This document shows, in pieces, positions 34,506 through 50,216 of a DNA stretch of 64,000 bases. Made by a program: the position numbers and the translations under genes. The notes under the pieces were generated by a model. The model was not told the DNA's origin. It ran no database searches and worked only from the letters and a program-made list of their open reading frames with translations. Every line of letters starts with the position of its first letter. The first letter of the stretch is position 1. The stretch comes from Tranzscheliella williamsii (taxonomy: Eukaryota > Basidiomycota > Ustilaginomycetes > Ustilaginales > Ustilaginaceae), in assembly GCA_023212725.1 (NCBI GenBank), contig JALBYF010000007.1:186001-250000 (forward strand). Direction: 5' to 3'.

Positions 34506-35190
34506 CCTGGCGAAGCAGGGCGTTGGGTGGCACTCTGCGATGTGATCGAGCTGTCTATGTCTCGCGGTCCGATAGCAGCAGGGTTAGGCGTTTCCAGAAT
34601 CACAGAGGCAGATGGTGGTGAGCAGAGGCGATTGCGTTGGTGGTGGTGGTGAGCAGAGGCGATTGCCTTTGGCAGTGGTCAAGGCGGTGAATCTGATAAT
34701 CACCAATCCAACCACGCGCCTGCCATTTCGCAGTAATCCAATAACACAGCCGCACTTTCACACTCACTGCACGCGCCCTTCACATTCATATTCATCCTCA
34801 TAATGTGATTCGCGTTCACTATTTACGTTTCTCGACCTAACATAGCAGCGGTCCATCACAATCTAACACGACGATCGCGAATAAATCATGAGTGCGAGGT
34901 GAGTGGGTTCATGGTCTTGGTCTGGAAGACCTTTGCACTTGGGACTCTACTAGCAACAGCAACATGGTGATGGTGGCGCTGAGCTAGGGAAGCGCCTGTT
35001 CTGCTCACCGCTTTCCGTGATCATTATTGCTTCGACGGGGACGCTTGCTTGCGCAAGCAGGGCCATCAACTCGAAGCGCCTCCTTTGGAGTGCTGCGCTG
35101 GCGAGCCACAGGGGCACTAGCTGCTCCTGCAACGCCCAGCTCCGTCAGCTTCGCAACGTGTCCGGCTCTGTTGTTAGCAGCAGCAGAAGA
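34506..35190. promoter_or_regulatory. divergent region, BolA-like / NTA1
   Basis: No separate gene. A 22-bp direct repeat (GGTGGTGAGCAGAGGCGATT core) is at 34614-34635 and 34645-34666. A possible short NTA1 first exon starts at the ATG at 34888, followed by GTGAGT at 34899. Confidence 0.45.
34614..34666. repeat. 22-bp exact direct repeat, two copies
   Basis: Two identical copies begin 31 bp apart, separated by a GTTGGTGGT spacer; likely slippage. Confidence 0.75.
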
Positions 35191-36207
35191 ATGCGAGTCG
35201 CTTGCGTGCAGTTCGATTCCAAGCATGCTGATGTGAGTACCAACGTGGCATCGGTCCAGTCTCTCGTCGCCGACTTGCTCTCGCGCAAGGAGCAGCAGCC
35301 CATTGATCTGCTCGTCTTGCCCGAGCTTGCCCTGACCGGCTATGTTTTCCAAGACGATAGCGAGATAGCACCGCTCCTCGAGGATCCCGCTTCGCTCACG
35401 CCCTCCTCCACGCCCAGCCTCGCCCTCGCTTCTGACCTGGCAAAAGCGCTCTCCTGCTACGTCGTCGTTGGGTTTCCAGAGTCAACCCATCACCACCACC
35501 GCCACACGCCGCCTGTGCCGCCTGTGCCACCAGCTGGGCAGGCCAGTGCACCTCACGACGCCAGGCCCACAGACCCAGCTTGTCGTGGGCTGCCGCCCCG
35601 CACTCATTTCGCCCGTAATTCGGCCGCTCTGCTGGATCATCACGGCCAGATTCTTCATATCTTCCGCAAGCACTTTCTCTACCACGACGACAAAAGGTGG
35701 GCATCCGAGGGTCTTGGCTTTGAGACCATCACCCTGCCAGGATTAGGCACGGTCTGCGTCGCGATTTGCATGGACCTCAATCCCTATGAATTCCGTACCC
35801 CGTTTGATGCATTCGAGCTGGCGACCTTTTGTGTTCAGCAGGATGTCGACCTTCTCATCATGCCCATGGCCTGGCTTCTGCCCGCGGAAGATGGCGACAA
35901 TGACGCTCTCCCACAACAGGGTGAGCAAGCAAGCCTCCCGACAATTAATTACTGGGCGTTGCGGTGCAGACCCTTTTTCGATCAGGCCAATGACAGTGAA
36001 CGTGCTGCTCACCTTGCCAACAAACCAGCCGGCCAAGACAAACCGAGATACTTCATTGCGGCTAATCGCACTGGCCAGGAAGGGCCGTCCACCTTTGCTG
36101 GCTCGTCATGCGTTCTGCAGATGAAGCTGGGCCAGCGCCCGCTTCTCTTGGGCTCGCTCGGCGCCTATCAGCAAGCCCTCCTCCTGGTCGACCTACCCAG
36201 CACCTAA
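35191..36207 (+). CDS. NTA1: NTA1 protein N-terminal amidase (nitrilase superfamily)
   Basis: From ATG at 35191 (MRVACVQFDSKHAD) it is 338 residues. The carbon-nitrogen hydrolase triad is visible: Glu in LLVLPELALTG, Lys in IFRKHFLYHDDKRW, and Cys in VAICMDLNPYEF. The FLYHDD and CMDLNPYEF versions are those of Nta1, which deamidates N-terminal Asn and Gln so that the N-degron pathway can arginylate and degrade the protein. A His/Pro-rich insertion (HHHHRHTPPVPPVPP) interrupts the domain near residue 97. The same frame runs back to 35017 without an ATG; an upstream 11-nt exon at 34888-34898 spliced to 35058 would add an Arg/Ser/Ala-rich lead resembling a mitochondrial presequence. The effector genes begin 76 bp after its stop. 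Confidence 0.85.
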   Translation: MRVACVQFDSKHADVSTNVASVQSLVADLLSRKEQQPIDLLVLPELALTGYVFQDDSEIAPLLEDPASLTPSSTPSLALASDLAKALSCYVVVGFPESTHHHHRHTPPVPPVPPAGQASAPHDARPTDPACRGLPPRTHFARNSAALLDHHGQILHIFRKHFLYHDDKRWASEGLGFETITLPGLGTVCVAICMDLNPYEFRTPFDAFELATFCVQQDVDLLIMPMAWLLPAEDGDNDALPQQGEQASLPTINYWALRCRPFFDQANDSERAAHLANKPAGQDKPRYFIAANRTGQEGPSTFAGSSCVLQMKLGQRPLLLGSLGAYQQALLLVDLPST

Positions 36208-36283
36208 ATACAGCGCTCTGCGCGGATGAACCCCTTTCAGCTGGCAGCAACGGATGGTGTGCCACCCTTTTCTCGCATTCACC

Positions 36284-37438
36284 ATGCATGGGGCCCATGC
36301 TTTCAGATCTTGCCTCCTGGCTGTTGCTCTTATACTCATGGCGATCGTTTCCGATTGCTGTGCAGTGGCACTTTTGCCGCGGCTTGACGCCGCCCATTTA
36401 CAACGTCGAGGCCCCATGGAGTCTGGACGACGGTGGGCCGAAGGCGCTAGCTCCTCGACGCTGCATCCTGCTCGTGTACCGCCTTCCCGCGCTTACTTTC
36501 CCGTGCAGACGAGCTTTGACGATTTCGTGAATTCGATAGATCCAGAGGCAGTGCGCCATCTTGCCACAACAGCTCCCAGCCAACTTGACGCTAGGTATGC
36601 AGACGTACCCGAGCATCAAGGCACCTATATCTTCTCTACGGACAGAGCCAGAGTGGCAGACGCACAGCAGGCGCTCAAGGACTTCGGCTCCATCGCCGTC
36701 GTGCACGACGTCGACAACGTGCAAGGCGTGCAGAAACTTGTCTTTGAAGCGGAGCGCAGAGACCCATTGAAGGTTGAGGCCTTTCCAACAAGGGTAGGGA
36801 ATGCCCTCATAGGCACCTACAATCTTGGTCGAAGGATGCACCAGCTCAAAAACGCGGTTAAGAGCGGCGAGCTTGGTGCGGCGGAGCATCGCCGGATCTC
36901 CTTCGACAACCTTCCCCATTTCAACCGTATACCTGTTCTCAGTCCGGACACCGGAGAACTACGTCAGATGAAAGCCATCCTGGAGAATATCCACCTCTTC
37001 TACTACCGGTATTGGCCGCTCTTGCACGAAGAGCGACAGGAGGTGCTCGCCATCAGAAATAGCGCTGATCGTTTCGCTACACCGACGGATTTCGAACGGC
37101 AGGACAGGATCCTTACCTTTCTCGATGGAACTCATCAGCAACAGTTAAGATATGGCAAGAACCTTGCTTCGCTGCTGCATGGCGGGGAGATCGAGCCTGA
37201 CCCGGACCTGGCAGTTGCAAGGGCTGGGAACCCCCCGCTTAGTCAGATCAAGCGTATCCAGCCGGGTCAGCCCCGTGCACACATGGTAGAAGCATTGCAG
37301 CACCACGGTACCTTCCGCTACCGGCACACTGACAACCACAACCCCATTTTCGAGGCCACTATGGAGGAGAGCGGCAAGGTCAATCTACGCGAACTCAGTG
37401 GCAGCGAACTTGTCGATGAGCTGCATTTCTGGATGTAA
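36284..37438 (+). CDS. predicted secreted effector-like protein 1 (384 aa)
   Basis: ATG at 36284 (context ACCATG) gives a signal peptide with hydrophobic core LLAVALILMAIV; an in-frame ATG at 36254 would add ten residues. A dibasic site, LQRR, ends at residue 42. No enzyme domain is recognised. The C-terminal half carries the feature shared with the next three genes: IPVL at 216-219, then RYG with Tyr290, then LLHG ending at Gly300, and an ending HHGTFRY with a following acidic/Gly turn (ESGKVN). This is the longest member of the four, with an extra 90-100 residues before the shared part. Single exon, no transmembrane segment after the signal. Function unknown; secretion and clustering suggest a host-interaction role. 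Confidence 0.8.
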   Translation: MHGAHAFRSCLLAVALILMAIVSDCCAVALLPRLDAAHLQRRGPMESGRRWAEGASSSTLHPARVPPSRAYFPVQTSFDDFVNSIDPEAVRHLATTAPSQLDARYADVPEHQGTYIFSTDRARVADAQQALKDFGSIAVVHDVDNVQGVQKLVFEAERRDPLKVEAFPTRVGNALIGTYNLGRRMHQLKNAVKSGELGAAEHRRISFDNLPHFNRIPVLSPDTGELRQMKAILENIHLFYYRYWPLLHEERQEVLAIRNSADRFATPTDFERQDRILTFLDGTHQQQLRYGKNLASLLHGGEIEPDPDLAVARAGNPPLSQIKRIQPGQPRAHMVEALQHHGTFRYRHTDNHNPIFEATMEESGKVNLRELSGSELVDELHFWM

Positions 37439-38098
37439 GCACCTGCCTGCTACTCCCAGGGCCGTTCGTCCACAAGCTCCTGTCTACTCGCATGTCAACG
37501 GACGCCCGGCAGTCGGCACATACCGATGCCTCGCAGTACCGTCCGTAGCGGGAGCAGCGCGGTTCGGTTCCTGGCCCTCACAATTCATAATGGGCAAAGT
37601 CGGTACGGAGCCACGATAGCTGTTTGCAACAGAGCCGATGGCAGCGTCACCACAACTTCCTCGAGAGCATGCGGCTGTGACGAAGGGAATTCGGCGTATG
37701 CGCGTGCTGGCTCGTCGATGTCGTCTTGTGCATGAAGGAGTGTCGAATGTGATGCAGATGGTGATGCAGCGTTCGGAACTGTTCAGATCGCCAAGCCATA
37801 TAGTCGACCGAAGACAACCCGAAACAGTGGTCTAGATGACGTGCTAATCACCTGCTGCGGCTGCCTTTCATAACCAGAACGAGGGCGAGTAAGGACACCC
37901 GCTCTTCGCTTACCTCGTACGCCCACATTGAGCTACTATATATATATACAGTACCCACAGCCGCCTGATGCAGATGAGTCCGCCGGCAGAAAATGTTCTG
38001 TGCGGGTTGCCCTGTGAGGAAGGGATACGTATATAACAGGGACGTCTCTAAGGAGTTTAAGGTGTTGCCCAAGCTGACCGCTCGCTGCGCGTTTCAGG
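37439..38098. promoter_or_regulatory. intergenic, effector 1 to effector 2
   Basis: No gene. Contains a TA run at 37937-37948 and the effector 2 TATA box. Confidence 0.45.
38030..38036 (+). promoter_or_regulatory. TATA box of effector 2
   Basis: TATATAA, 69 bp before the ATG. Similar boxes precede effectors 3-6. Confidence 0.55.
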
Positions 38099-39028
38099 AT
38101 GCGCCTCGGTTGCCTAGGCTCTGCTCTCTTGTGCGCCGCCTGGGTGGCTACCTTTGTGGATCACACCGGCACACTTGCACGAGATGTCAGGCCTAGGCAG
38201 CCTCCTGGAAATCTGGAACGTAGGGACCCCCGACCGACGAGGTCGTACTACTGGTTCGAGAAAAACCACGCTGGCCCGTCCGATATTCAACCGGCAGATG
38301 ACATCGAGCTGGCTCCCGCCCGGCAGCACATTCCAAGCAGCCCGACCATGGATGCAAACATCCAAGAATTCCAGAAAGCCATCCATGACGGTGGTGGTAA
38401 GGCCCCAGCCGGAAGCGGTCCAGTATGGGACTTGGCCGGCCAACCGCACTACCAGGGGGTTCCCGTCTTTTCCAGTTATGACAGCAACGTACACTTCCTA
38501 GTGCAGGCGCATCGGGACGGAACTGGTTTCTACTACGATCAGGTCGGGTATCATGGGGCTCCGAGCGTGTTGAAGGTTAGTGCCAAGGCCGACGGCGGTA
38601 TCTCGTTCATCGATGTCGCCCCGGACGTAGCACGCGCTGTTCGTCTTTTAAGAGAGGGTGTCCCTCTGACGGATAGACGTTACGGAACCGTGCTGGCCAG
38701 TGTGCTATACGGGAGGCCGATGCCTCTCGGCCCGCAGCCTGCGCGCTCGATAGGCTCACCCCTTCGGGTGTTCAACTCGCAGGAAGCCATTCGAAGCCGG
38801 CTTGTCGATGCCTTGCAGCAACATGGCCGCTTCGAATATCACAAGCCAGACACCCAAGCAAGGTGGATCGTCCAGATGGATGACGCCGGCCAAGTCGTCG
38901 CCGTGCCGCATACAGAACCAGCCCGCGCCGTGCCGCGCACAGAACCAGCCCGCGCCAGATCGAGGTTCGCAGACCTTGCGCGCAAAGCCAAGAGTGTGTT
39001 CAAGAAGGCGCCAGATTTCCGCGCTTGA
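38099..39028 (+). CDS. predicted secreted effector-like protein 2 (309 aa)
   Basis: Begins MRLGCLGSALLCAAWVATFV, a short signal peptide. A dibasic site, LERR, ends at residue 42. The shared domain is clear: GVPVF (Pro122), RRYG (Tyr195), VLYGRP (Gly205), then LQQHGRFEYH and the hairpin-like WIVQMDDAGQVV. Residues 269-286 contain a nine-residue imperfect tandem repeat (VPHTEPARA then VPRTEPARA), followed by a strongly basic C-terminal helix (ARKAKSVFKKAP), which could act as a nuclear or membrane-binding signal. One exon, no cysteine-rich pattern in the mature part. Function unknown. Confidence 0.8.
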   Translation: MRLGCLGSALLCAAWVATFVDHTGTLARDVRPRQPPGNLERRDPRPTRSYYWFEKNHAGPSDIQPADDIELAPARQHIPSSPTMDANIQEFQKAIHDGGGKAPAGSGPVWDLAGQPHYQGVPVFSSYDSNVHFLVQAHRDGTGFYYDQVGYHGAPSVLKVSAKADGGISFIDVAPDVARAVRLLREGVPLTDRRYGTVLASVLYGRPMPLGPQPARSIGSPLRVFNSQEAIRSRLVDALQQHGRFEYHKPDTQARWIVQMDDAGQVVAVPHTEPARAVPRTEPARARSRFADLARKAKSVFKKAPDFRA

Positions 39029-39525
39029 CTCTTTCTTGTGCTTTTCCGCGGCGCAACGCTGGCATGTATGGCGCCGCAGAGGCCTTCACGCTGGTCGCAC
39101 CGTGTGGCGACGAATGCAAAGGCCGCGCTGCATGCCGCAGTAGCTAGGTGGTACCCTCGACTGTCTCGCCATTACGGCCCGCATGTGCGCCGTCTGAGTA
39201 GTGTGACGTCGCATGGGCCTCATCAAGCTGGCCATGAACCTTGCATGTGTGGTGCGCTCGACTGGGAATTATTCATGACGGCCGCCGGTGGGTCTGCCCC
39301 CTGAACGGATGGACTCATCACTCCGACTCATCGACAATCGGGGCGGGCTGGTGAGTGGCAACCTGAAGCGGCACCGAATGAAGGCCGGTCGTCGACAATG
39401 GTGGTTCCGCGCTGCTCAGGACTCGCCCAGCAAGGCATATAAAGCCGGGCTTGCACCGTCCCAGTTCGTTGATAACGCTCCAATCCACTTAACCTTCTGA
39501 GACGCTGCATCTTCTGGCTCTCACG
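39029..39525. promoter_or_regulatory. intergenic, effector 2 to effector 3
   Basis: No gene. Holds the effector 3 TATA box at 39438-39443. Confidence 0.45.
39438..39443 (+). promoter_or_regulatory. TATA box of effector 3
   Basis: TATAAA, 88 bp before the ATG. Confidence 0.55.
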
Positions 39526-40314
39526 ATGTTGTACGTCTTCCAATGTCTGCTTCTTCTGGCCGCAGCAGCTGTGGCCGTTTCTTCGTCCCCTTCGTCCTCT
39601 CCACCTACGAACATGGACTCGCTTAAAACTCTGCAGAAACGGATGCGAGAATCTAGCCCCGCTTCTGTTCCTAATGACTTTCATCGGGTGACAATGTATT
39701 TGCAACCGGAGGCTGGCGTTGCTGTTAAGGAGGGCAAGGATAGAAAAAAAGCTTATATAGAGTATCCATTCCTGGACTCTGTGCCTGTTGTTCACTTCGG
39801 AGATCAGAGTGACAGAGAAAGGTTGCCAACAATCTTGGCTCATTGGCAAGACCGAGGCATGTACATCTACACGCTTGACTCCCAAGGCGAAATCGTAGCC
39901 AGTAGAACTGGTAACGAGAATCGAGTCCAAGTACCTGACCTTGCAGGCTTACAAAAGATCCATCAGGTCCGCCAACGCTACGGCAAGATAGTGAGTTCAC
40001 TGGCGTTTGGCCAGCCGTACAACGATAGGAACAGTGTCGTCGCAACATTCACCACGAAACCCACATGGAACAACGTCTGGCGTTCCGAACCAGTGAGCGT
40101 CGTGGACCCAGCTGCGGGGACAACAACCCAAGGCGCATACACATCAGTCAGGAGCCTGAGGCAACTGCTGCTGCAAAAGCGCTTTGCGAAATTTGTCGCC
40201 AATGGAGCGGAGCTTGGCGTCCGTCTGGACACTAAAAACGAGATCGAGGTGGCAGAACTTATAAGGGACAGTGCTACGCTGGTCGTCATGCGTGGAGCGC
40301 ACTACTTCCCCTGA
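39526..40314 (+). CDS. predicted secreted effector-like protein 3 (262 aa)
   Basis: Signal peptide MLYVFQCLLLLAAAAVAVSS, then a dibasic LQKR ending at residue 39. The shared domain is shorter than in its neighbours: SVPVV (Pro87), RYG (Tyr152), LAFGQP (Gly162), an ending KRFAKFV and the GVRLDTKNEI hairpin. The Pro-to-Tyr distance is 65 residues instead of 73, consistent with one deletion of eight residues. WQDRGMYIYTLDSQGEI between the motifs looks like two beta strands. One exon; no known domain. Confidence 0.8.
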   Translation: MLYVFQCLLLLAAAAVAVSSSPSSSPPTNMDSLKTLQKRMRESSPASVPNDFHRVTMYLQPEAGVAVKEGKDRKKAYIEYPFLDSVPVVHFGDQSDRERLPTILAHWQDRGMYIYTLDSQGEIVASRTGNENRVQVPDLAGLQKIHQVRQRYGKIVSSLAFGQPYNDRNSVVATFTTKPTWNNVWRSEPVSVVDPAAGTTTQGAYTSVRSLRQLLLQKRFAKFVANGAELGVRLDTKNEIEVAELIRDSATLVVMRGAHYFP

Positions 40315-41355
40315 GGTTCGCATAGCATACACACACGCCAACCCTCCGTTGCCCCGCCCGGCATGCATACCACCTGATCTTGTATGTAACAGCCCGCGGT
40401 TCACTAAGGGACCACGCGGGCCGCCTATTTAGCGTCCTTTGAACCGACTTGATTTCTGCGATCGCGACTCGGACTGCCTGTGGCCACATTTGTTTGAGTG
40501 GGAGAATGGCGTGCGAGCAGCACATTACGACACCCTGCGGATGGGAATAGGGGACGCGCAGCGGCGGGCGTTGGCGCAAAGAATTGCAGCGGAGTCCGCT
40601 GCAAGCATTCAGCCGGTGGTCCTGCGCAGAAGAAACGTCGTGACGTCGCCAATCGAACGGGTCGAATGCCTCTTTCGGAAAGTGGACTTCATTGCAGCCA
40701 CAGCCAAGCGGTGGTCTATACGCACTTGAAAGTACACAATGAAAATGGCATGCGATGTCAAGCGGCGTAGCGACGGCGAAGGGACAGTCCGTTAAAGGTA
40801 TACTGGCGAGGCATTCGGCAGTAGGTCATCGGTCCAGAAGAGGTACTCTCTCTTTTCTGAAGTTCAGCCTTCATTTCACAGATGAAGGCGGCACTAAAAT
40901 GGCGTCAATTGAGCATCACAAAGGCATGCTGACGATGGTGGTGCTGATGATGATCTAAAGGACCCACCAAAACGAAGATGACTCGGTGCACAAACGAGCT
41001 CGATCTGGTGTAAGAGTCCATATGGGAAATGAAGGACGAAATTGACCTGCTCCGAGGATCAGGTCAATCTCAAAAGAGAGTACCTTCTGTAGTAGCCTGA
41101 CATTTCACGAGGTTGCCACCAGTCGCAGTGACTAGCAATATTACAATAGTGAGCTGGCGACATGAAGCGACGGACACATGAAAGCCATCCGACCCGCCGC
41201 CCCGAAATAAGGAGACACGACTCGGCCTGAGCAGCCCCTTGCACAGCTGGTGCTCGTATATAAGGTGCAACTTGCGTCACGTCCTGCACCTTCCTCTGCC
41301 AACACATAGCGTCCAAAAGCCTAGCGTCTTACACAGTCTGCACGATCTGGCCGCC
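40315..41355. promoter_or_regulatory. intergenic, effector 3 to effector 4
   Basis: About 1 kb without a credible gene. The effector 4 TATA box is at 41257-41265. No degenerate effector copy could be recognised by eye. Confidence 0.45.
41257..41265 (+). promoter_or_regulatory. TATA box of effector 4
   Basis: TATATAAGG, 99 bp before the first ATG. Confidence 0.6.
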
Positions 41356-42177
41356 ATGATGCCCCATGCCTTTAGGTACCTGTTCCTGCTGGCACTGGCA
41401 GCAGCGGCTATTGGCATTGCTTCATCATCTCAGCTCTCCCGTGCTACAAATGCCAATCTCGACATATCCTGGCAAAGACGGATGGAAGGAGGCTCATCAT
41501 CCACAGCCTCAAGAATGGCCACATGGAACTGGGTCCTGCGCCACATGACGGCGGCCCCTGCCACAGAAAGCAATACACTGACTGAAGAGGGAAGAAAGCA
41601 GTACTACCTTGGGCACCTGTTTTTTGATGGCTTGCCTGTCTTTGAAGCCGAAGCAACTACCGAGACAGCCTTAAAGAAAGCTCTTCTTCATTGGGAAGGC
41701 AAGATCTGGACCTATTCCCTGCCTCCGCGAAGAAGACTCGAGGAGATGGACCTCGTGAGATGGCTTCCATCGCGAAAAACGGAGATGGTCGGCATCACCA
41801 AGGAAGGCGAGTTTAAATATCATATAGGCAAGGCACGCGAGGTCCAGAGCGGTTTCGGCCCGTTGACGGCTTCGCTGACCCACGGTCAGCCGTATTCTCC
41901 GTTATCCTGGGCCTCTTCATTGAAACCATCTCGAAAGAAAACTCCGTGGACGGAAGTCATCAGATCCGATGTCTACCATACCCCCAGCCGTCTTGAAGAT
42001 ATCAGCAGGTTGCGAGAGACGTTGAATTCGAAGCGCCATATATTGCTCAAAAACCCCAGTGATGGAAGTCGGATTGGCATTCGTCTGAACAAGAAAGGAG
42101 TGCCCGACTTCACACGACCTGGTGTCGAAGCCAGTGAAGCCGCTGAAGGCTTGCAAGAAGTGGCCAGGCACATATGA
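41356..42177 (+). CDS. predicted secreted effector-like protein 4 (273 aa)
   Basis: ATG at 41356 (a second ATG follows directly) begins MMPHAFRYLFLLALAAAAIG, a typical signal peptide; the 39 codons upstream in the same frame would hide it and are rejected. A dibasic WQRR ends at residue 42. Shared domain: GLPVF (Pro94), GFG (Phe167 in place of Tyr), LTHGQP (Gly177), then KRHILLKN and RIGIRLNKKGV. ALLHWEGKIWTYSL corresponds to effector 3's ILAHWQDRGMYIYTL. Single exon. Function unknown. Confidence 0.8.
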   Translation: MMPHAFRYLFLLALAAAAIGIASSSQLSRATNANLDISWQRRMEGGSSSTASRMATWNWVLRHMTAAPATESNTLTEEGRKQYYLGHLFFDGLPVFEAEATTETALKKALLHWEGKIWTYSLPPRRRLEEMDLVRWLPSRKTEMVGITKEGEFKYHIGKAREVQSGFGPLTASLTHGQPYSPLSWASSLKPSRKKTPWTEVIRSDVYHTPSRLEDISRLRETLNSKRHILLKNPSDGSRIGIRLNKKGVPDFTRPGVEASEAAEGLQEVARHI

Positions 42178-42893
42178 TTGATCCCGTCTTTGCCACATAC
42201 ACAACATACACGGGATCGGCTATCGGGGAGATTCGCTCGCGCTAGTAAAGATTACGTCGGTGTATCATTTCCCATGAAAAGTCTTGACTCTTCGAGGCTG
42301 TGCGTACGTCGCGGCCAAGCCTGACGAAATCACTCCCCAAGAATGATAGGGGTGAAGTGTGCCAGACGTGTTGCTGCGCATTGCGGATTGTGGTTGTGAA
42401 AGAGCATTTGTCCGTGGGCATTTCTGCGATGGCTCAGCACCTGTTCGTCTTGTGTTGTTGGGCAAAAGAAACAAGTGTGCGCGTCGCTACGGGAGATGAA
42501 GCCACGCTTGTGCTGGCGTGTCGGCGCTCAATGAAGGCAAGCCTGCTCCCACACCACGTCGTGGGCGGAAGCCGCGTTCCAGCGCCCCAGGTGGGACCGG
42601 TCGTAGGCTTTTCGAGCAGCAGCAAGCGGAGCGCAGGCGCGCACGTTCGCGCATCGGCGAGCTCGCCACCTCCTCCCACCAACCTCATCAGCCCAGCCCA
42701 CCGACTTCACATGCTCGGGGCGTAGCCCTACACCCCCGCTGTCACATGCGCAGCATATGTATAAGGAGGGCATGATGCGCCAACCTCCTGGCCTCGCTCA
42801 CGCTAACACAACAAAGCTGCCTTTGATTCCGCCGTGTTTCCTCACCCAACTTTCAGTGTTGAAGCCTTCCGTCGCTCCTCCATCTCGAGCAAC
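42178..42893. promoter_or_regulatory. intergenic, effector 4 to effector 5
   Basis: No gene. Parts of 42528-42600 and 42802-42880 resemble the region upstream of effector 6, and a TATA box is at 42760-42766. Confidence 0.5.
42760..42766 (+). promoter_or_regulatory. TATA box of effector 5
   Basis: TATAAGG, 134 bp before the ATG; same sequence and similar distance as in effector 6. Confidence 0.55.
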
Positions 42894-43853
42894 ATGCGGC
42901 CCAGACGAAACTGGTCCTTTCCGACACTTGTTTGCTTGCTCATTCTGGTTTGGCTCGCTTTGTCGCAGCCTGTCCAATCGCAAGTTATCAAAGGCAAGCC
43001 TCTCGATAAGTTAGAACCAATACCTGAAGATGACGTTTCAAACACCCCGGATCTTGACCCGGAAGAGAGACGGGAAGCGCAGGTGGCGAGACAAAGAGCG
43101 CAGGAGCAAGCACGTATGGATGCGGCCCTTAACGCCATCAAAGACGAGCCTGAATCTCTTGACGATAAATCTGAAACGCCTCGGACGGCTGATCCGGCTG
43201 AAACCGCAGGGACGCCAGGAAGGCCTGGAGCGCCTGGCACACCTGGCGCTCTTGAAGCCACTGGGACTAGGACCCGCCTTGTCTCCTTTCTAAATCGAGC
43301 GAAGCCGGCTATACGTATGCCGTCTTTCAGCAGGCCGGTGCGATGGCTGTTTGGGCCCGGGGGGACTCAACAAGCCTCTCTGCCGGCCTCAAGATACAGT
43401 TCAGCAGTGCACCCCGACATAGAAAATCAGGCCTTGAATGACCCGCGGAGAGTCGCGCAAGCCAATGCAGAGCACCTGCCTACACGTGCTGAGGCGATGG
43501 GTAAATTACCGACGCATGGGCACTATCCTATTGTGCCGCTTGGTGGTCCTCAGGAACGTGATATGCTCAAACAGCTGCATGGCCAAATTTTCTACGGTAT
43601 CAACACGCGCACAAGGGAAGTATGGCGGTACGAGCCGGAAGAAAGAACTTTTGCGATCAACGAGCATGAACTTGGATATAAGAGTGGGTTTTCCACGACG
43701 CCTGTCAGCGGTACCCAAGAAGGCATGAGTGTTTTGCGGTCGGCATCATCAGGCGGAAATGCCCTGAAGGTAGCCGCGCCAGGCTGGGGGGAGCGTATCT
43801 CGCAAGGCTTCCGTGACTTTGCCAGTTCCGTTCCGAGATGGATCCATGGCTGA
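42894..43853 (+). CDS. predicted secreted effector-like protein 5 (319 aa), paralogue of 6
   Basis: ATG at 42894; the frame upstream has only a GTG. The signal peptide core is TLVCLLILVWLAL. The mature N-terminal half is acidic and disordered, with five Gly-X-Y triplets at residues 106-120 (GTPGRPGAPGTPGAL), a miniature collagen-like run. The C-terminal 110 residues are paralogous to effector 6: YPIVPLGGPQERDM, QIFYGINTRTREVWRYEP, PVSGTQEG and the ending GWGERISQGFRDFASSVPRW. A tryptophan-rich amphipathic C-terminus suggests a protein or membrane contact. No known domain. Confidence 0.8.
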   Translation: MRPRRNWSFPTLVCLLILVWLALSQPVQSQVIKGKPLDKLEPIPEDDVSNTPDLDPEERREAQVARQRAQEQARMDAALNAIKDEPESLDDKSETPRTADPAETAGTPGRPGAPGTPGALEATGTRTRLVSFLNRAKPAIRMPSFSRPVRWLFGPGGTQQASLPASRYSSAVHPDIENQALNDPRRVAQANAEHLPTRAEAMGKLPTHGHYPIVPLGGPQERDMLKQLHGQIFYGINTRTREVWRYEPEERTFAINEHELGYKSGFSTTPVSGTQEGMSVLRSASSGGNALKVAAPGWGERISQGFRDFASSVPRWIHG

Positions 43854-43889
43854 CCGCGCAAGGCGAGCCACAAAGGCCCAGACGGACCC

Positions 43890-43974
43890 GCATCGCCATG
43901 GCATCGTCGTTGCATCGTTTTCGCATCGTCATCGCATCGCCATCGCATCGTCATCGCATCGCCAATGTCGTTCC
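43890..43974. repeat. GCATCGYCATC tandem repeat array
   Basis: Four near-perfect 11-bp units lie at 43923-43966, alternating GCATCGTCATC and GCATCGCCATC, with more degenerate units on the left side (GCATCGCCATG, GCATCGTCGTT). It lies about 40 bp after the effector 5 stop, probably in its 3' UTR. Confidence 0.85.
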
Positions 43975-44425
43975 CGGCAACTTTTTTTCGCGCGCCAGCT
44001 TCTTTCGCACATCCGCGACGGACTCTCATGTCCGTCTCTGTCTGAATTTCAATTTTCATCTTTTAGTCTCTGTGCTGTATGCGGTCGATTTTATATCAGC
44101 AGAGCTGCGCTGCATGTCAGTATGTGAAAGCCACGGTCTCTGCGGTGCATAGCGCACCAAGCGATGAAGCATCAACAGAGGCAGGATCGGGATCGGCAAC
44201 GCCTCTGAACCATAAACGTACATCCGTGCATCGCTGCGAGACATGAAGCGCCAACGCGCAGGTATGCTGCGGTGTGGGTCGATGAAGGCGAGGCTCCTCC
44301 CACATTACGCGGTTCAGAGGCAAGGTTCCTGGCCAACCTGGCAGCCAGAATAGCGCCCGACCGAAGCATCAAGGCGACACTATGGCAAACCTTGTCCGAC
44401 GCCCACTCGAGCCGCATTCGACTCA

Positions 44426-44432
44426 TATAAGG
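44426..44432 (+). promoter_or_regulatory. TATA box of effector 6
   Basis: TATAAGG, 126 bp before the ATG. Confidence 0.55.
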
Positions 44433-44551
44433 TCGTCGGATCGCGCGAATGCCGCTCCTTCAGCAACACAACAAAGCTGGCTTTGGTCCCCCAGTGTTGC
44501 TTCCCCATTCCACTGTTCATTGAAGTACTCAGCCATCGCGTACAGATCGTC

Positions 44552-45511
44552 ATGCAGGCAAGACGTTCTTCACTCACACTCCTTTTTTGGTTGACTCTGG
44601 TCACTGCCGTTCTGTCAGCGGTTCAGTATCCTCACCCTTCGCTTTCGTCGCCGCTCTCATCGATCCCAGAAGGAGCCGAAGAGCCGTTATCCCCACAAAG
44701 CGGCAGTCCGCCCCCAGGCCACCCAGACAACTCTGCATCAGATCTTACTGGACATGCTCGACCGGATAGACAAGCGTGGGCGGAGGCTGCGGAACCGATC
44801 CAACCCGCACGGGCGCCGAGCCAGCCTCCGCCGACACTCGCTGATCTCTTGCAATGGCGCGGGGATGGAGGTCAGGGCCAGACCCCGCCGAGCTTAGCGA
44901 GTCTTCTGCAGCAGAGGAGAGAGGAAGAGCAGATGGAACGGACCAGAGCGTCCTCAGATCCAGTCAGCTCTCCGCCGCGTATGGAAAAGGTCAGCGAGGC
45001 CTCACGGGGACGCTTGCAGCAGGCCGAACCGGCTGATGCCCAGACCCACCCGCCCGTGGCCGAGCCGATCCCGGCCGAGGCGACGGTCGAGAGGAACGGG
45101 CTGGTGAAGACTCTCGAGAATATAAGAGATGTGTATATGAACAAGCCGGATGCGGCGCCTTACCAGGTGTTGAAGAAGTTGCCGTTGTACAGGCAAGACC
45201 GCTCTTTCGTGCCCTTTTGGCGTTCTGAACCTCGCAAAGGGACCGTCATTGTGCCGCTTGGACATCCTAAGGAGACGGGCATATTCTCCAGATTGATACA
45301 GAGCCGCCAAAGCTTCTACACAGTTGACCGCCAGAACGGAGAAACATGGCGGGCCCAACCCTCTGGTAGGTATTATCGCGTGCATCCTATCACCGGAACT
45401 GAAGAGGGCCAAAGAGTTCTGCAAGCGGCGAGACCCGGCTGGTGGGAGCGGATCTCGCAAGGCTTCCGCGACGTTGCCGCACGAAACTTGCCGAAGTGGC
45501 TGCACGCCTGA
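44552..45511 (+). CDS. predicted secreted effector-like protein 6 (319 aa), paralogue of 5
   Basis: ATG at 44552 (the frame upstream starts only at a TTG) opens a signal peptide MQARRSSLTLLFWLTLVTAVLSA. The mature N-terminal part is Pro/Ser/Glu-rich and includes an internal repeat, PPPTLADLLQWR then PPSLASLLQQR. The C-terminal part matches effector 5: TVIVPLGHPKETG, QSFYTVDRQNGETWRAQP, PITGTEEGQ and GWWERISQGFRDVAARNLPKW. The precursor has exactly the same length as effector 5, though the disordered halves have diverged widely, so the C-terminus is under stronger constraint. One exon; no known domain. Confidence 0.8.
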   Translation: MQARRSSLTLLFWLTLVTAVLSAVQYPHPSLSSPLSSIPEGAEEPLSPQSGSPPPGHPDNSASDLTGHARPDRQAWAEAAEPIQPARAPSQPPPTLADLLQWRGDGGQGQTPPSLASLLQQRREEEQMERTRASSDPVSSPPRMEKVSEASRGRLQQAEPADAQTHPPVAEPIPAEATVERNGLVKTLENIRDVYMNKPDAAPYQVLKKLPLYRQDRSFVPFWRSEPRKGTVIVPLGHPKETGIFSRLIQSRQSFYTVDRQNGETWRAQPSGRYYRVHPITGTEEGQRVLQAARPGWWERISQGFRDVAARNLPKWLHA

Positions 45512-46379
45512 GCGCGCGTCGCCGCCATGTCGCCATCGTCGTCGCCGCAGGTACACACTTGCGCGTCTGCCTTCGTCGGCGTACGCGCTACGCGCTTCCT
45601 TCCACACCAGTGTACTACACCCTCCGCCGCTTGGTCTCGTGCTGTGAGCTGGAACTCACCGCAGCTGCAGGCGCTCTCGCCAGATGTTGGACCGCATCCT
45701 GGCGACCCGCTGGTTCCCCGCACCATAGCCTGCTCAGCGCCGCAACTCCTTCCTCGATTCCCGGCCGCTCGTACATCATCTCCAAGCAACTATTAGCAAC
45801 GTAGTGCGCGTTGGGCTGCACGCGTGGCCTTGGTCCTAATGAAGTACGTTCTTTGATTGCAACATCTCTTAACAACACAATGATGGATGTGCAAGCCGCT
45901 CATTTCACCGGTCTGCGTGGCAGCAGTACATATGCTGCGGGTAGGTGGGAGTCCCAACCTGCTTCCAACAGCGCACGCAGCTTGACACGCGTGGCACGGA
46001 TGCCACGCACAGGAGGTGGGCTGTGGGATGCTGGCGCATCTGCGCTGTGGCTGCGAGCGTGCCGAGCCAGGCACAGCACCGAGACCGTTGCTGTCCCCTG
46101 ATTTGGCGCCCACCGACGCACGAAATGAAGTCTCGTTGTCCAGCGCGGGTCGCACAACACGCCCTGGCTCTGGCGCGATGAAGCAAGGATGGGCTAATGA
46201 ACAACAGCCTTGACGACCCGCTGGTGGAGTGCACTCTGCCGTCGGTGCGAGCGTATCTACCTCCCCCTAAGGCAACTTGTTTCCGCGCACCACGGTCTCT
46301 ACACGCCACCACGCTCTTGCTGTCTGCTTGCCCGTTTCGCTCGACGTGCGTGTTCAGCAACGTCGCTAGCGCCGTAAAC
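45512..46379. promoter_or_regulatory. intergenic, effector 6 to effector 7
   Basis: No gene and no clear TATA box. Small frames here are unrelated to the neighbouring family. Confidence 0.45.
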
Positions 46380-48065
46380 ATGCGTTTCTTCGCGATCCAC
46401 GTTGTCAGGCGCGCGCAGCACCGGCTCGGCCGTCGCGCTGCGGGTGTCTACGCTTCGCTGTTGCCGCTTCTCCTCGTCGCGGCGGTCTTTTTCACAGCGG
46501 GTGCCTCCTGTTCAGCGCATACGCACAGGGGAAGCCTAGTCCTTTTGACACGGAGGAGCGGCAGCGGCGCCGCTGGCTCGGGCGGATCCACGCCGCAATC
46601 AGAAGCGCAGCTCGCTGCGTCTGCGGGCTCTGAAGCTGCCTCCAGCTCTGGCACGACACGGAAGAAGTGGCTGATGGCCCCAGCCGAGCCAGCCGGGCCG
46701 GCGCACAGGCGCGCGACGTCGGATGAAATCACAGAGGTAGAGCCCGAGGTAAGGCCCAGAGTGGAGTCCGAGGGATCCGAGTCAGGTTCCGCATCTGGCT
46801 CCGAGACTGAATACGAGGCGGGGTCCGAGTCGGGCTCCGAGCCGGGGGTCCGAGCTGGATCAGAGGCGGGGGTTCAAGCTGGATCCGAGGCGGGGGTCCA
46901 AGCTGGATCCGAGGCGGGAGTTCGAGCTGGATCTGAGCCGGGGGTTCGAGCTGGATCCGAGGGCGGGGTCCGAGCTAGATCCGGATCGGGGCCCGAAGGG
47001 TCGCCCGAGGCGGAGCGCGAGGCCGGGGCGAGGCCGCCCACCGTGAAGCCGATTGCGGTGGTCAAGGCCAAGTGGGTGGGCGACACGTTCGAGGGCAGTG
47101 TGCAAGATCCGAGGAACAAGCCATTGCGCGAGGCGCTCGACAAGCTGGCCCACCCGGACGACTACGTCGAGGTGCACTTTGCCGAGCGTCCGTTCCAGAA
47201 GACGTATGTGTCGTTGCCGCCGCTCTACTACAGTTCGCGCAAAGTTGCCTGGAGGCCGTATGAAAGACAGACGTACCAGATCCTACCTGGGCGCGCTCCG
47301 AGCGACGAGGCGCCGCAGGCCAAGGGCACCTGGGCGCAGTGGCAGGACAGGTACGCCGACTACATGGACCGGCGCGCGCGTGCCCGTATCCCGGGCCTCT
47401 CCCAGTTTGCCACATCCAGGGGCAAGCCTATCTTCATGTCCGAGCTTGTCTCCGGCGAACCCTTCATTCCTCCCCGCGCTCGAGAGGCCGCGCAGAAGTT
47501 CGGCGAGGCCCGCCTCTTCGTCGACCGCGACCGGCCGGACGTCCAGATCAGGCTCGTCTACCTCGGCCCGCAACCACGCCCGGGCACTTTCGGCCCCGCG
47601 CACGCGGAAGGCACCCCGTTCACCCCCGCACCCGCGTCGCAATTCCGTAGCTACCTTGTCAAACCAAACCAGGCGGTTCCGCTTCCGGATAAGTACAGGA
47701 ACTTTGACAACCGAATGCTGCTGGAGACCCTCAACTCTCCTCAGGAAGAGTATTCAAGTTTCGACAGTTCAGATATCGAGCAAGGTGAGTCAGGCGAGGC
47801 GCCTCGCAACGCTCGCCGGACGCCGTTCTGGAAAGTTGCCGCCGACCGCGCCAAGGGCGCCTTTCCAAGATGGCCCGCTGGAGAGAACCTCCTGAGGGCC
47901 GCCCGTCTCAAGATCAGTTCCGCGGCTAGGGCTACGCGGTCAGCGTCTACGGCTCTGCGCATCTCTGTCTTTACGCCGTTCAACAGGCCCGAAAGGATTC
48001 GGTGGGTGAGAGATGCCACCGACCACGTGGCGGAGATGTGGGGCCATGCCAGAGCGGCCGTGTAG
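46380..48065 (+). CDS. predicted secreted protein 7 with 8-residue repeats (561 aa)
   Basis: ATG at 46380 gives a basic lead and hydrophobic core (YASLLPLLLVAAVFFTAGA), a long-n-region signal peptide; an in-frame ATG at 46197 would bury it. A dibasic LTRR ends at residue 59. Residues about 60-150 are Ser/Gly/Glu-rich, then six tandem 8-residue units of the form E-x-GV-x-A-x-S run from residue 154 to 201 (bases 46839-46982). The C-terminal 350 residues are more ordered, with YVEVHFAERPFQKTYVSLPP and a basic end, but I do not recognise a family and could not align it to effectors 1-6. Single exon, last gene of the secreted cluster; it converges with ARP6. Confidence 0.75.
   Translation: MRFFAIHVVRRAQHRLGRRAAGVYASLLPLLLVAAVFFTAGASCSAHTHRGSLVLLTRRSGSGAAGSGGSTPQSEAQLAASAGSEAASSSGTTRKKWLMAPAEPAGPAHRRATSDEITEVEPEVRPRVESEGSESGSASGSETEYEAGSESGSEPGVRAGSEAGVQAGSEAGVQAGSEAGVRAGSEPGVRAGSEGGVRARSGSGPEGSPEAEREAGARPPTVKPIAVVKAKWVGDTFEGSVQDPRNKPLREALDKLAHPDDYVEVHFAERPFQKTYVSLPPLYYSSRKVAWRPYERQTYQILPGRAPSDEAPQAKGTWAQWQDRYADYMDRRARARIPGLSQFATSRGKPIFMSELVSGEPFIPPRAREAAQKFGEARLFVDRDRPDVQIRLVYLGPQPRPGTFGPAHAEGTPFTPAPASQFRSYLVKPNQAVPLPDKYRNFDNRMLLETLNSPQEEYSSFDSSDIEQGESGEAPRNARRTPFWKVAADRAKGAFPRWPAGENLLRAARLKISSAARATRSASTALRISVFTPFNRPERIRWVRDATDHVAEMWGHARAAV
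46839..46982 (+). repeat. six 24-bp coding tandem repeats in secreted protein 7
   Basis: Units encode E[A/P/G]GV[R/Q]A[G/R]S. Neighbouring copies differ by one to three bases, so the array is recent and likely to vary in copy number between strains. Confidence 0.88.
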
Positions 48066-48242
48066 AGTGCCCCCTCTCACCTGCCGCACCGGCCAGCACC
48101 GCCCCGCATGCTTTTTCGTCCTGCTTCCCCTTTTCTGCCTGTTTCGTTTTGGTGCAGACTGTTGTGCATAGCCTCGGCATGAGCTTGACTTGGACGCCGT
48201 GCTGATCGCCGCGGGCTGTATGTGCGAGCATGTGGGGGTGGA

Positions 48243-50216
48243 TCAGTGGGGTTGTGCATGCAAGGAGGGGCGGAAGCGCCTGCGTGCGAGGACGAGCGGG
48301 TCGGGAGCGGCGACCCATTCGTGGTAGGGGAGGAGCCTGGTGGCGAGGAGTTTGGCCTCGGACGAGTGCGGTGCGGAGGCGAGCGCCGTGGCGAGGAGGA
48401 TGGCGGCGCGGATGGCGGTTTGGGCGGGGTCTGGGCCGGTGCAGATGCGGAGGGGCACGTCGGCGGGCGCGCGTGGGCGGAGATCGTGTGCAAGGCGCCG
48501 CTCCAGACCCACCGTCTTGGCCAGCCCACCGACGAGCAGGACGTGCGCCCACATCAGCGAGGCCGCATCCCCTGACACCGCCGCAACAGCCTCCGCAACA
48601 AGGCCCGACAGACCGTGCTGATCCAGCCCAATCGACCCCGGGTTGAACAGCGTCTCCATCACCCCGAAACGCTCGCCCTCCAGCACGAGCGCTTGCTTCT
48701 CCTCGCCCTCGCCATCTGCATCCTCCCTCTCTTCCCCGTCTTCCCCATCCTCAGCGGCAACAGTCTCGGACTGGACAGCCTTGCGCTTGCGTATCGGGCC
48801 GCCAGAGGGGCCCGGAGGGCTGGCAGACTGAGCGATGAAGGCAGCTTGCCACTCCAAGTCGGCTTGACTGGGCGAGCCGACACTCCCCGTTCCGCTCTCT
48901 CCTGGCTCTACTGGAGGCGTGCTGGGTTTGTGGGGTAGAGTGCCGTTGTTGGATGCGCTACGCTGCCACAAGCTGCTGCTACCGGGGTTGGGACCGCGGA
49001 CGATGGTGCCATACTTGCCCTCTTCGTCCGCCGCGGTCGTGGAGTAGTCTGGAAGGTTCCAGACAACGTTGACGTCGCTGGGCCGCTTCCTGGACGAGCC
49101 AAATTTGGCAAGGACAAGCAGCTCTTCGTACGTCCAGTCTGTGGGGCTTTTGGTGCGCATTCGCTCGATCAGTTTGCGCGGAGGGACGCCAATAGGCCGT
49201 GTGCCGGAGGCGGCCGCGACGAAGCAGGTGCGTTCGCGGATGTACGAAACGAGCCAGCTCTCGTCCATCATGTCGAGCTGGCGAAAGGAGAGCGACTCTT
49301 TCAGAAGGTTGGTCAGAATCTTGCCGCCCAGATCCAGCCGTCGCACAGCGGCCCATTGCACCTCACCGCGGATGACAGGAACAGCATGACAGAAGGAGTA
49401 ACCCACATCGAGCACCAGCATCGCTTCAGGCCGCCGACAAAGCGGCTTGGGAGGCGCAGACGGCCCTGACTCGGAGCCTTTGGTGCGGGTATCGGATGGC
49501 CCAAGCCGAGATGGTCGAGAAGATCGCTTCGGCTTCTTGCTGGAAGCCGCAGCCGGGCTGGGCGCAGCCTCTGGGCCTTGGTGCCCGTTGGTATCGGCGG
49601 ACGTTGAATTCTGCGGCGGCTTAGACGGAAAAGAAGTAGTGGGGTCAAACACCTCGGACCAGGCGGCGAGGCTTGCGGGGTCACAGCGCCATACTGCGGC
49701 AGCACCATACTCCTCGAAGAGCATCAAGTCGGTGGCCTGCTCCACCTCGTCGAACGTGAAATAGGATTCGGTGATGATGACCGCTTTGCGATGCAATAGT
49801 CTACCGTCCGAAGGCTTGCGGAAGGCGCTATGCGAATGGCTAGCAAAGTGAGACGTGATGACATGATCCCATATGGTCTTCTGGGCTGCCCAGTCCGAAA
49901 TGACACCCTTCTGGTGAGGGAGGCGCAGGTGCAGGCCCCCGTAGTCGGAGAGGTCCTTATGTATATCGGAGGAGACGAACAGTCTGCGGGATGAGGGACC
50001 CTGTGAGGAGCGTGTCCGGGCTATAGCGTTTGGGAAGTTGTCGATGCGGACGGACGAGGGCAGGAGATTAGGCTCCGGATAGGGTATAGATGCGATGCGG
50101 ATGGTATGTGCGCCATTGTCGATGAGTACGATGCCGTCGACATCCACAAGCGGGTCTTCGTTGGATGCTGATAGCGATGGGGAGGCGGGCGAAGGCGAAT
50201 GCGTCGGTGCAGGCAT
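48243..50216 (-). CDS. ARP6: ARP6 actin-related protein (SWR1 complex)
   Basis: A 657-residue, one-exon actin-fold protein. The first actin signature is GIVLIDNGAHTIRIA; the core contains PHQKGVISDWAAQKTIWDHV, EEYGAAAVWR and the phosphate-2 region LVLDVGYSFCHAVPVIRGE, followed by RRLDLGGKILTNLLKESLSFRQLDMMDE (read in pieces), which is diagnostic of Arp6. LVGGLAKTVGLERRL near the end is the actin GG loop. Arp6 with Swc6 forms part of SWR1, which places H2A.Z in nucleosomes. The protein is larger than usual (about 400-450) because of two Ser/Pro and Glu-rich insertions, near residues 200-250 and 430-530. The codon bias switches at about 48490. Confidence 0.9.
   Translation of the reverse strand: MPAPTHSPSPASPSLSASNEDPLVDVDGIVLIDNGAHTIRIASIPYPEPNLLPSSVRIDNFPNAIARTRSSQGPSSRRLFVSSDIHKDLSDYGGLHLRLPHQKGVISDWAAQKTIWDHVITSHFASHSHSAFRKPSDGRLLHRKAVIITESYFTFDEVEQATDLMLFEEYGAAAVWRCDPASLAAWSEVFDPTTSFPSKPPQNSTSADTNGHQGPEAAPSPAAASSKKPKRSSRPSRLGPSDTRTKGSESGPSAPPKPLCRRPEAMLVLDVGYSFCHAVPVIRGEVQWAAVRRLDLGGKILTNLLKESLSFRQLDMMDESWLVSYIRERTCFVAAASGTRPIGVPPRKLIERMRTKSPTDWTYEELLVLAKFGSSRKRPSDVNVVWNLPDYSTTAADEEGKYGTIVRGPNPGSSSLWQRSASNNGTLPHKPSTPPVEPGESGTGSVGSPSQADLEWQAAFIAQSASPPGPSGGPIRKRKAVQSETVAAEDGEDGEEREDADGEGEEKQALVLEGERFGVMETLFNPGSIGLDQHGLSGLVAEAVAAVSGDAASLMWAHVLLVGGLAKTVGLERRLAHDLRPRAPADVPLRICTGPDPAQTAIRAAILLATALASAPHSSEAKLLATRLLPYHEWVAAPDPLVLARRRFRPSLHAQPH

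What the first reader, a model, noticed from the sequence alone, without database searches (positions are those of the whole stretch)
36284..42177. Effectors 1-4 share a domain with fixed residue spacing
Each has a P-V-[hydrophobic] site (Pro217, Pro122, Pro87, Pro94), then YG or FG 73, 73, 65 and 73 residues later, then a Gly (LLHG, LYG, AFG, THG) exactly 10 residues after that aromatic, then a final [HK]-x-x-F-type strand and an acidic/Gly turn followed by Val or Ile. Overall sequence identity is low, so ordinary similarity searches may miss it. The constant spacing argues for a common fold and local gene duplication.
Basis: seen in the sequence. Interest (0 to 1): 0.8.

Follow-up and report, generated by a model that had tools for sequence, protein, structure and literature searches.

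The report
Four duplicated smut-type effectors share domain
Four neighbouring genes of a smut-type fungus code for proteins that look secreted and unrelated at first sight but carry the same domain, a signature motif and a shared processing site, most likely because they arose by local duplication and then diverged fast, an arrangement already familiar from other smut fungi.

Summary
In all four proteins P-V-hydrophobic is followed by [YF]G 73, 73, 65 and 73 residues later and by Gly exactly 10 further on; 0 of 20,000 joint shuffles reproduce this in even three of the four. The core is one motif, [YF]G-x3-[AS]S[LV]-x2-G. Trained on one pair (E1/E2 or E3/E4), it finds the exact site in the other pair, 4 of 4 times, at 0-6 of 3000 shuffles. 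Profile comparison joins the pairs in register. The "final strand" part is not supported across pairs. New here: a shared dibasic, Kex2-type site in all four and no cysteine beyond the signal region in all seven cluster proteins. E5-E7 lack the motif. Ordinary BLAST already pairs E1-E2 and E3-E4, each other's only relatives found genome-wide. Structure models are too weak to prove or name a fold. Best reading: a tandem-duplicated, fast-diverging secreted effector family, like U. maydis clusters 10A and 19A; membership in either could not be tested. Ordinary kind, apparently new family.

The parts
36284..37438 (+). E1, protein of 384 aa with a signal-like N-terminus, single open frame
   Evidence: (annotated frame scores best of six by codon usage)
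36398..36409 (+). E1 LQRR, dibasic Kex2-type site, residues 39-42
   Evidence: the enzyme is inferred
36932..36940 (+). E1 P-V-L (Pro217)
37151..37183 (+). E1 signature motif YGKNLASLLHG (Tyr290-Gly300)
38099..39028 (+). E2, protein of 309 aa with a signal-like N-terminus; paralogue of E1
38213..38224 (+). E2 LERR, dibasic Kex2-type site, residues 39-42
38462..38470 (+). E2 P-V-F (Pro122)
38681..38713 (+). E2 signature motif YGTVLASVLYG (Tyr195-Gly205)
39526..40314 (+). E3, protein of 262 aa with a signal-like N-terminus
39631..39642 (+). E3 LQKR, dibasic Kex2-type site, residues 36-39
39784..39792 (+). E3 P-V-V (Pro87)
39979..40011 (+). E3 signature motif YGKIVSSLAFG (Tyr152-Gly162)
41356..42177 (+). 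E4, protein of 273 aa from the ATG at 41356, signal-like N-terminus; paralogue of E3
41470..41481 (+). E4 WQRR, dibasic Kex2-type site, residues 39-42
41635..41643 (+). E4 P-V-F (Pro94)
41854..41886 (+). E4 signature motif FGPLTASLTHG (Phe167-Gly177)
42894..43853 (+). E5, neighbouring protein (319 aa), a different family: no signature motif
44552..45511 (+). E6, paralogue of E5 (319 aa), no signature motif
46380..48065 (+). E7, neighbouring protein (561 aa) with a low-complexity repeat, no signature motif

Best explanation
E1-E4 are one family of secreted effectors made by tandem duplication, probably two rounds: one ancestor gave the E1/E2 and E3/E4 lineages, and each then split into neighbours. 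Each protein is targeted to the secretory route by a signal peptide (inferred from hydrophobicity), loses a short pro-stretch at a dibasic site at residues 38-42 (inferred, Kex2-type), and is released as a cysteine-free protein. The mature part carries one shared domain: the P-V segment, then a helix and three strands, then a helical segment with the signature [YF]G-x3-[AS]S[LV]-x2-G, then a second helix-and-strands part that has diverged most (this element order is from weak models). The motif probably holds the domain core (two glycines for tight turns, an aromatic and small residues for packing), while the variable outer parts bind different partners in the plant host, so that each copy can take on another target, as shown for two paralogues of U. 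maydis cluster 10A. Shown here: homology, motif, conserved dibasic site, cysteine absence, cluster layout. Inferred: secretion, cleavage, effector role, target binding.
For: Spacing and motif exact in 4 of 4 and cross-predicted between pairs. BLASTP E1-E2 1e-7, E3-E4 1e-7; genome-wide only each other, E 9.1e-4, 2.3e-4, 7.2e-9, 6.2e-9. hhalign of the two pairs: prob 63, P 7e-5, aligning P-V to P-V and YG...G to YG...G. Controls: E1-E4 against seven unrelated window proteins, 26 of 28 comparisons at P 0.1 or more, two at 0.001 and 0.003, both against the Rho-type GTPase (label recalled). Dibasic site in all four at residues 38-42, 0 of 20,000 shuffles. Hydrophobic N-terminal stretch in 7 of 7; no Cys beyond residue 26 (residue 44 in E7) in 7 of 7. 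All seven genes on one strand with gaps of 497-1041 b between them. Published parallels: cluster 10A proteins lack cysteines beyond the signal, form small paralogue families, and eight of ten suppress PAMP-triggered immunity (PMC8224859, passages); the Tin2-like family of cluster 19A shares structure without sequence similarity (PMC9816061, passages).
Against: No expression data, no host known, no signal-peptide predictor run. The C-terminal part is not joined across pairs by sequence, and E1-E4 (P 0.21) and E2-E4 (P 0.39) show no pairwise similarity above shuffles. The P-V segment alone scores about as well in E5 as in E3. Models are of low confidence, also at the motif (E3 blocks of 54 and 48). 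No relatives outside this genome were found, so the motif rests on four sequences of one genome.
Confidence: 0.72

Rival explanations
1. The cluster is a diverged counterpart of a described smut cluster: the Tin2-like family of U. maydis cluster 19A, or the Pleiades, cluster 10A, and the domain is the Tin2 fold or the fold of one Pleiades family.
For: Same kind of layout: tandem secreted genes in small sequence families plus singletons; cysteine-free beyond the signal as in 10A; Tin2-like genes diverge beyond sequence similarity while keeping a fold. The window is from a fungus whose ARP6-type gene is closest to a Testicularia cyperi protein and to other smut proteins.
Against: No sequence link found: profile search of E1-E4 and a core search with E2 gave nothing, although the flanking ARP6-type gene finds smut proteins in the same database. 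No structural comparison with Tin2 was possible.
Confidence: 0.4
2. The resemblance between the two pairs is chance or convergence; only E1-E2 and E3-E4 are related.
For: Pairwise similarity across pairs is weak or absent (E1-E3 P 0.001, E2-E3 0.013, E1-E4 0.21, E2-E4 0.39), and two unrelated controls reached P 0.001 and 0.003. The C-terminal part does not cross-predict.
Against: Motif cross-prediction 4 of 4 at 0-6 of 3000 shuffles; in-register profile match over 101 columns; same dibasic site at the same place; adjacency in the genome.
Confidence: 0.05
3. E1-E4 are secreted proteins of the fungus's own life (cell surface, mating, yeast growth) and not effectors acting on a plant.
For: No host, expression or virulence data; [quoted passage not shown]
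Against: Fast divergence, clustering and lack of cysteines and known domains (Pfam none for E1-E4) fit described smut effector clusters.
Confidence: 0.2

Closest known systems
Pleiades, Ustilago maydis effector cluster 10A (PMC8224859, passages read)
   Same: Tandem secreted genes in small families plus singletons, no known domain, no cysteine beyond the signal, families defined at 24% similarity or more, no paralogues outside the cluster.
   Different: Ten genes against seven here; whether any gene is an orthologue, and whether the flanking genes match, was not testable. Immune suppression is shown there and only inferred here.
Tin2-like (SUSS) effectors, U. maydis cluster 19A and beyond (PMC9816061 and PMC4081774, passages read)
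   Same: A cluster of secreted proteins that look unrelated but are thought to descend from one ancestor; small sequence families of adjacent paralogues; in some members, disordered N-terminal stretches with dibasic sites.
   Different: There the common fold rests on structure models of the secretome; here it rests on sequence. The Tin2 fold could not be compared. Members there also lie on other chromosomes; here only local relatives were found by single-protein searches.
C-terminal domain of bacterial hibernation promoting factor (PDB 3lyv, 5nko, 6t7o)
   Same: Strand-helix-three-strand order as in the predicted halves (fold recalled); recurs among the top structure matches of the E2 model.

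Membership tests
E1-E4 as one homologous family | Sequence relation between the two pairs in register | tested here: met
   (motif and P-V stretch; the C-terminal part not)
E1-E4 as one homologous family | Same three-dimensional fold by confident independent models | tested here: inconclusive
   pLDDT 45 and 53; element order agrees roughly, models not independent
E1-E4 as one homologous family | Signature motif absent from unrelated cluster neighbours | tested here: met
   E5, E6, E7 lack it
Pleiades (cluster 10A) | No cysteine beyond the secretion signal | tested here: met
   7 of 7 proteins, (signal region judged by hydrophobicity)
Pleiades (cluster 10A) | Synteny and orthology with UMAG_03744-03753 | not testable with these tools
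Tin2-like effectors (cluster 19A and relatives) | Tin2 core fold | not testable with these tools
   no Tin2 structure or sequence was fetched; own models of low confidence
Tin2-like effectors (cluster 19A and relatives) | Sequence similarity to a known subcluster | tested here: inconclusive
   no hit, but these searches reach only close relatives
Secreted fungal effector (kind) | N-terminal hydrophobic stretch of a secretion signal | tested here: met
   hydrophobic 12-mer of mean hydropathy 2.24-3.32 starting at residues 7-27 in 7 of 7; a crude check, no dedicated predictor
Secreted fungal effector (kind) | Induction during plant colonisation, effect on host | not testable with these tools
   no expression or phenotype data
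HPF C-terminal domain (PF16321) | Match to the family profile | tested here: not met

The most novel reading that the evidence does not exclude
E1-E4 define a new effector domain of smut-type fungi built from two similar strand-helix-three-strand halves joined by the signature helix [YF]G-x3-[AS]S[LV]-x2-G, with E1 holding part of a third half; one dibasic-processed precursor plan has been copied and re-aimed at several host targets. The element order of the weak models allows this, and two stretches of E1 (9-133 and 211-366) align to stretches of E2 that overlap at its P-V segment, residues 116-140, but unit-against-unit sequence tests do not support an internal repeat.
Probability: 0.15. Interest if true: 0.55.

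Novelty: new member of a known kind. Interest (0 to 1): 0.35.

Why it matters
It gives a testable sequence signature and a shared processing site for a fast-evolving, apparently secreted family in a smut-type genome, and one more case in which neighbouring effectors that look unrelated are one family. If the fold proves to be that of Tin2 or the Pleiades, those families would be older than the split of this lineage from the Ustilaginaceae in which they were described; if not, it is a new effector domain.

Tried and rejected
Chance spacing: rejected by shuffles and cross-prediction. E5-E7 as further members: no support by hhalign or motif; the best weak signals, of many comparisons, are E2-E5 P 0.028, E5-E7 P 0.012 and E4-E6 P 0.051, E3 C part with E5 z 3.5, the C-part profile with E5/E6 reached by 2 of 200 permutations over 8 columns, and the E1-E4 profile with E7 at hhalign prob 1.3, P 0.039. 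Internal repeat within each protein: suggested by eye, by predicted element order and by E1 109-163 with E2 116-170 (z 3.6, the highest of the 78 unit comparisons that are not between counterparts), but B against C within a protein gives z 1.3, 0.4, 0.5, -0.1, the B against C profiles score prob 1.2 with 16 columns aligned (1 of 200 permutations as good), and the motif is absent from the E1 N-terminal part (3031 of 5000 shuffles as good; P-V 301 of 5000). Fold naming: Foldseek and VIA gave no significant match (PDB for both models, viral library for the E3 model only); SH2, polo-box and HPF C-terminal rows were weighed and dropped as chance-level. Known domains: Pfam none for E1-E4 at E up to 10; below-cut-off rows only for E5 (Nnf1, 0.032) and E7 (Yae1_N, 0.0056; LEAP-2, 0.23). 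PDB sequences: searched with E3 (best E 0.041) and the four-protein core profile (best E 0.3), none significant. RNA families: none over threshold in 35000-48500. Shared upstream words: no 9- or 10-mer common to four of the seven 800-b upstream stretches. Outside relatives: none; the positive control, the flanking ARP6-type gene, found 23 proteins, of which 14 carry an organism name and 12 of these are Ustilaginales (order recalled), so smut proteins are in the database, but the method needs shared 5-letter words and misses distant effectors. E5 was not used as a whole-genome query. Identity of the fungus: not settled beyond smut-type (best ARP6 match Testicularia cyperi, 45%).
Full report
What is there. 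The window lies in an 18.2 Mb, 135-contig assembly. The genome is therefore taken as a smut-type fungus. Between a nitrilase-type gene (35017-36207; label recalled from its sequence, no family search run) and ARP6 lie seven single-frame genes on the + strand, E1-E7, at 36284-48065. For all seven the annotated frame has the best codon-usage score of the six, each has a strongly hydrophobic stretch near its N-terminus, and none has a cysteine beyond residue 26 (E7: 44).

The observation. The spacings are exact as stated: 73, 73, 65, 73 and then 10 in all four. The finding is best restated as one motif, [YF]G-x3-[AS]S[LV]-x2-G, present once in each of E1-E4 and absent from E5-E7. In 20,000 joint shuffles no set had the looser triple in three or four proteins. 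Because the pattern was chosen after seeing the sequences, I used cross-prediction: a matrix from one pair scans the other. It hits the true site as the best position in 4 of 4 cases, with 0, 6, 3 and 2 of 3000 shuffles as good; the six scans of E5-E7 with these matrices gave nothing better than 373 of 3000. The same test for the P-V segment hits the true site 4 of 4 times but with 317, 37, 142 and 29 of 3000, while a site in E5 reached 234 of 3000. For the C-terminal helix and strand it fails: 1 of 4 at the right place, none significant.

Homology. BLASTP joins E1 with E2 and E3 with E4 at 1e-7 in single comparisons; in the whole genome each finds only its partner besides itself, with E 9.1e-4 and 2.3e-4 for E1/E2 and 7.2e-9 and 6.2e-9 for E3/E4 (the tool scores only its best candidates). 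E6 likewise finds E5 (7.1e-9), and E7 has no close relative (best other match E 0.012). Across pairs, local alignment against windowed shuffles gives P 0.001 (E1-E3), 0.013 (E2-E3), 0.21 (E1-E4) and 0.39 (E2-E4); of 28 control comparisons with seven unrelated window proteins two reached P 0.001 and 0.003, so these values alone would not do. Profile comparison of the two pairs gives probability 63% and P 7e-5 over 101 columns, aligning P-V with P-V and YG...G with YG...G; each pair against the E5/E6 pair gives nothing.

A second shared feature. All four carry [L/W][Q/E][K/R]R at residues 39-42 (E1, E2, E4) or 36-39 (E3), between the signal and the mature part. Neither this pattern in residues 34-45 nor a plain dibasic in 38-43 appeared in all four in 20,000 joint shuffles of residues 26-60. 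This is the type of site cut by Kex2; KR, RR and LxxR are named as putative Kex2 motifs of Tin2 fusion proteins in PMC9816061 (passage). It was not part of the finding and supports one precursor plan.

Internal repeat. The element order suggested two similar halves, with a further part in E1. Tests by pairwise shuffles, profile permutation and matrix scan gave one moderate signal (E1 109-163 with E2 116-170, z 3.6) and otherwise chance or near-chance values for the repeat. I keep it only as the novel case.

Outside relatives and the literature. A four-sequence profile search (7,999 candidates) and a core search with E2 (704 candidates) found nothing. This is a weak negative, since the tool needs shared 5-letter words. 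From passages of PMC9816061: the Tin2-like effectors of U. maydis are a family that lost sequence similarity, the 19A segment holds 24 secreted effectors in five gene families and singletons, and some relatives are fused to disordered N-terminal stretches. From passages of PMC4081774: the 24 proteins of cluster 19A have no recognisable domains. From passages of PMC8224859: cluster 10A has ten proteins, cysteine-free beyond the signal, in three families and two singletons, eight of which inhibit PAMP-triggered immunity, with two paralogues acting in different compartments. From passages of PMC12503489: Tin2-like proteins are the largest U. maydis cluster (31). Nothing in these passages, nor in the listings, describes the motif found here; those searches did not look for it by letters.

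Verdict. The domain is real, its origin by tandem duplication is well supported, and the spacing reflects one conserved motif. The kind is known. The family looks new by the searches that could be run, but orthology to a described smut cluster stays open and is the first thing to check.

Noticed in passing
window 42894-45511 (E5, E6): E5 and E6 are a separate paralogue pair (BLASTP 5e-17 among the seven) with a strongly kept C-terminus, PGW-ERISQGFRD-A--LP-W-H, for which no counterpart was seen in the other cluster proteins.
   Followed up: partly
window 46800-46983: 24-b tandem repeat (7.6 copies) in E7, coding an acidic Gly-Ser-Glu-Ala-Gly-Val type repeat.
   Followed up: no
window 38899-38956: 27-b tandem repeat (2.1 copies) inside E2 near its C-terminus, giving a duplicated P-[HR]-TEPARA stretch.
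   Followed up: no
window 36608-36931: E1 has about 95 more residues before its P-V site than E2 (Pro217 against Pro122); E1 residues 109-133 resemble the E2 P-V segment, a possible partial extra copy.
   Followed up: partly
window 36208-36283: Only 76 b separate the stop of the nitrilase-type gene from the start of E1, so the E1 promoter probably overlaps that gene.
   Followed up: no
window 43889-43964: CGCATCGTCAT-type tandem repeat in the gap between E5 and E6.
   Followed up: no
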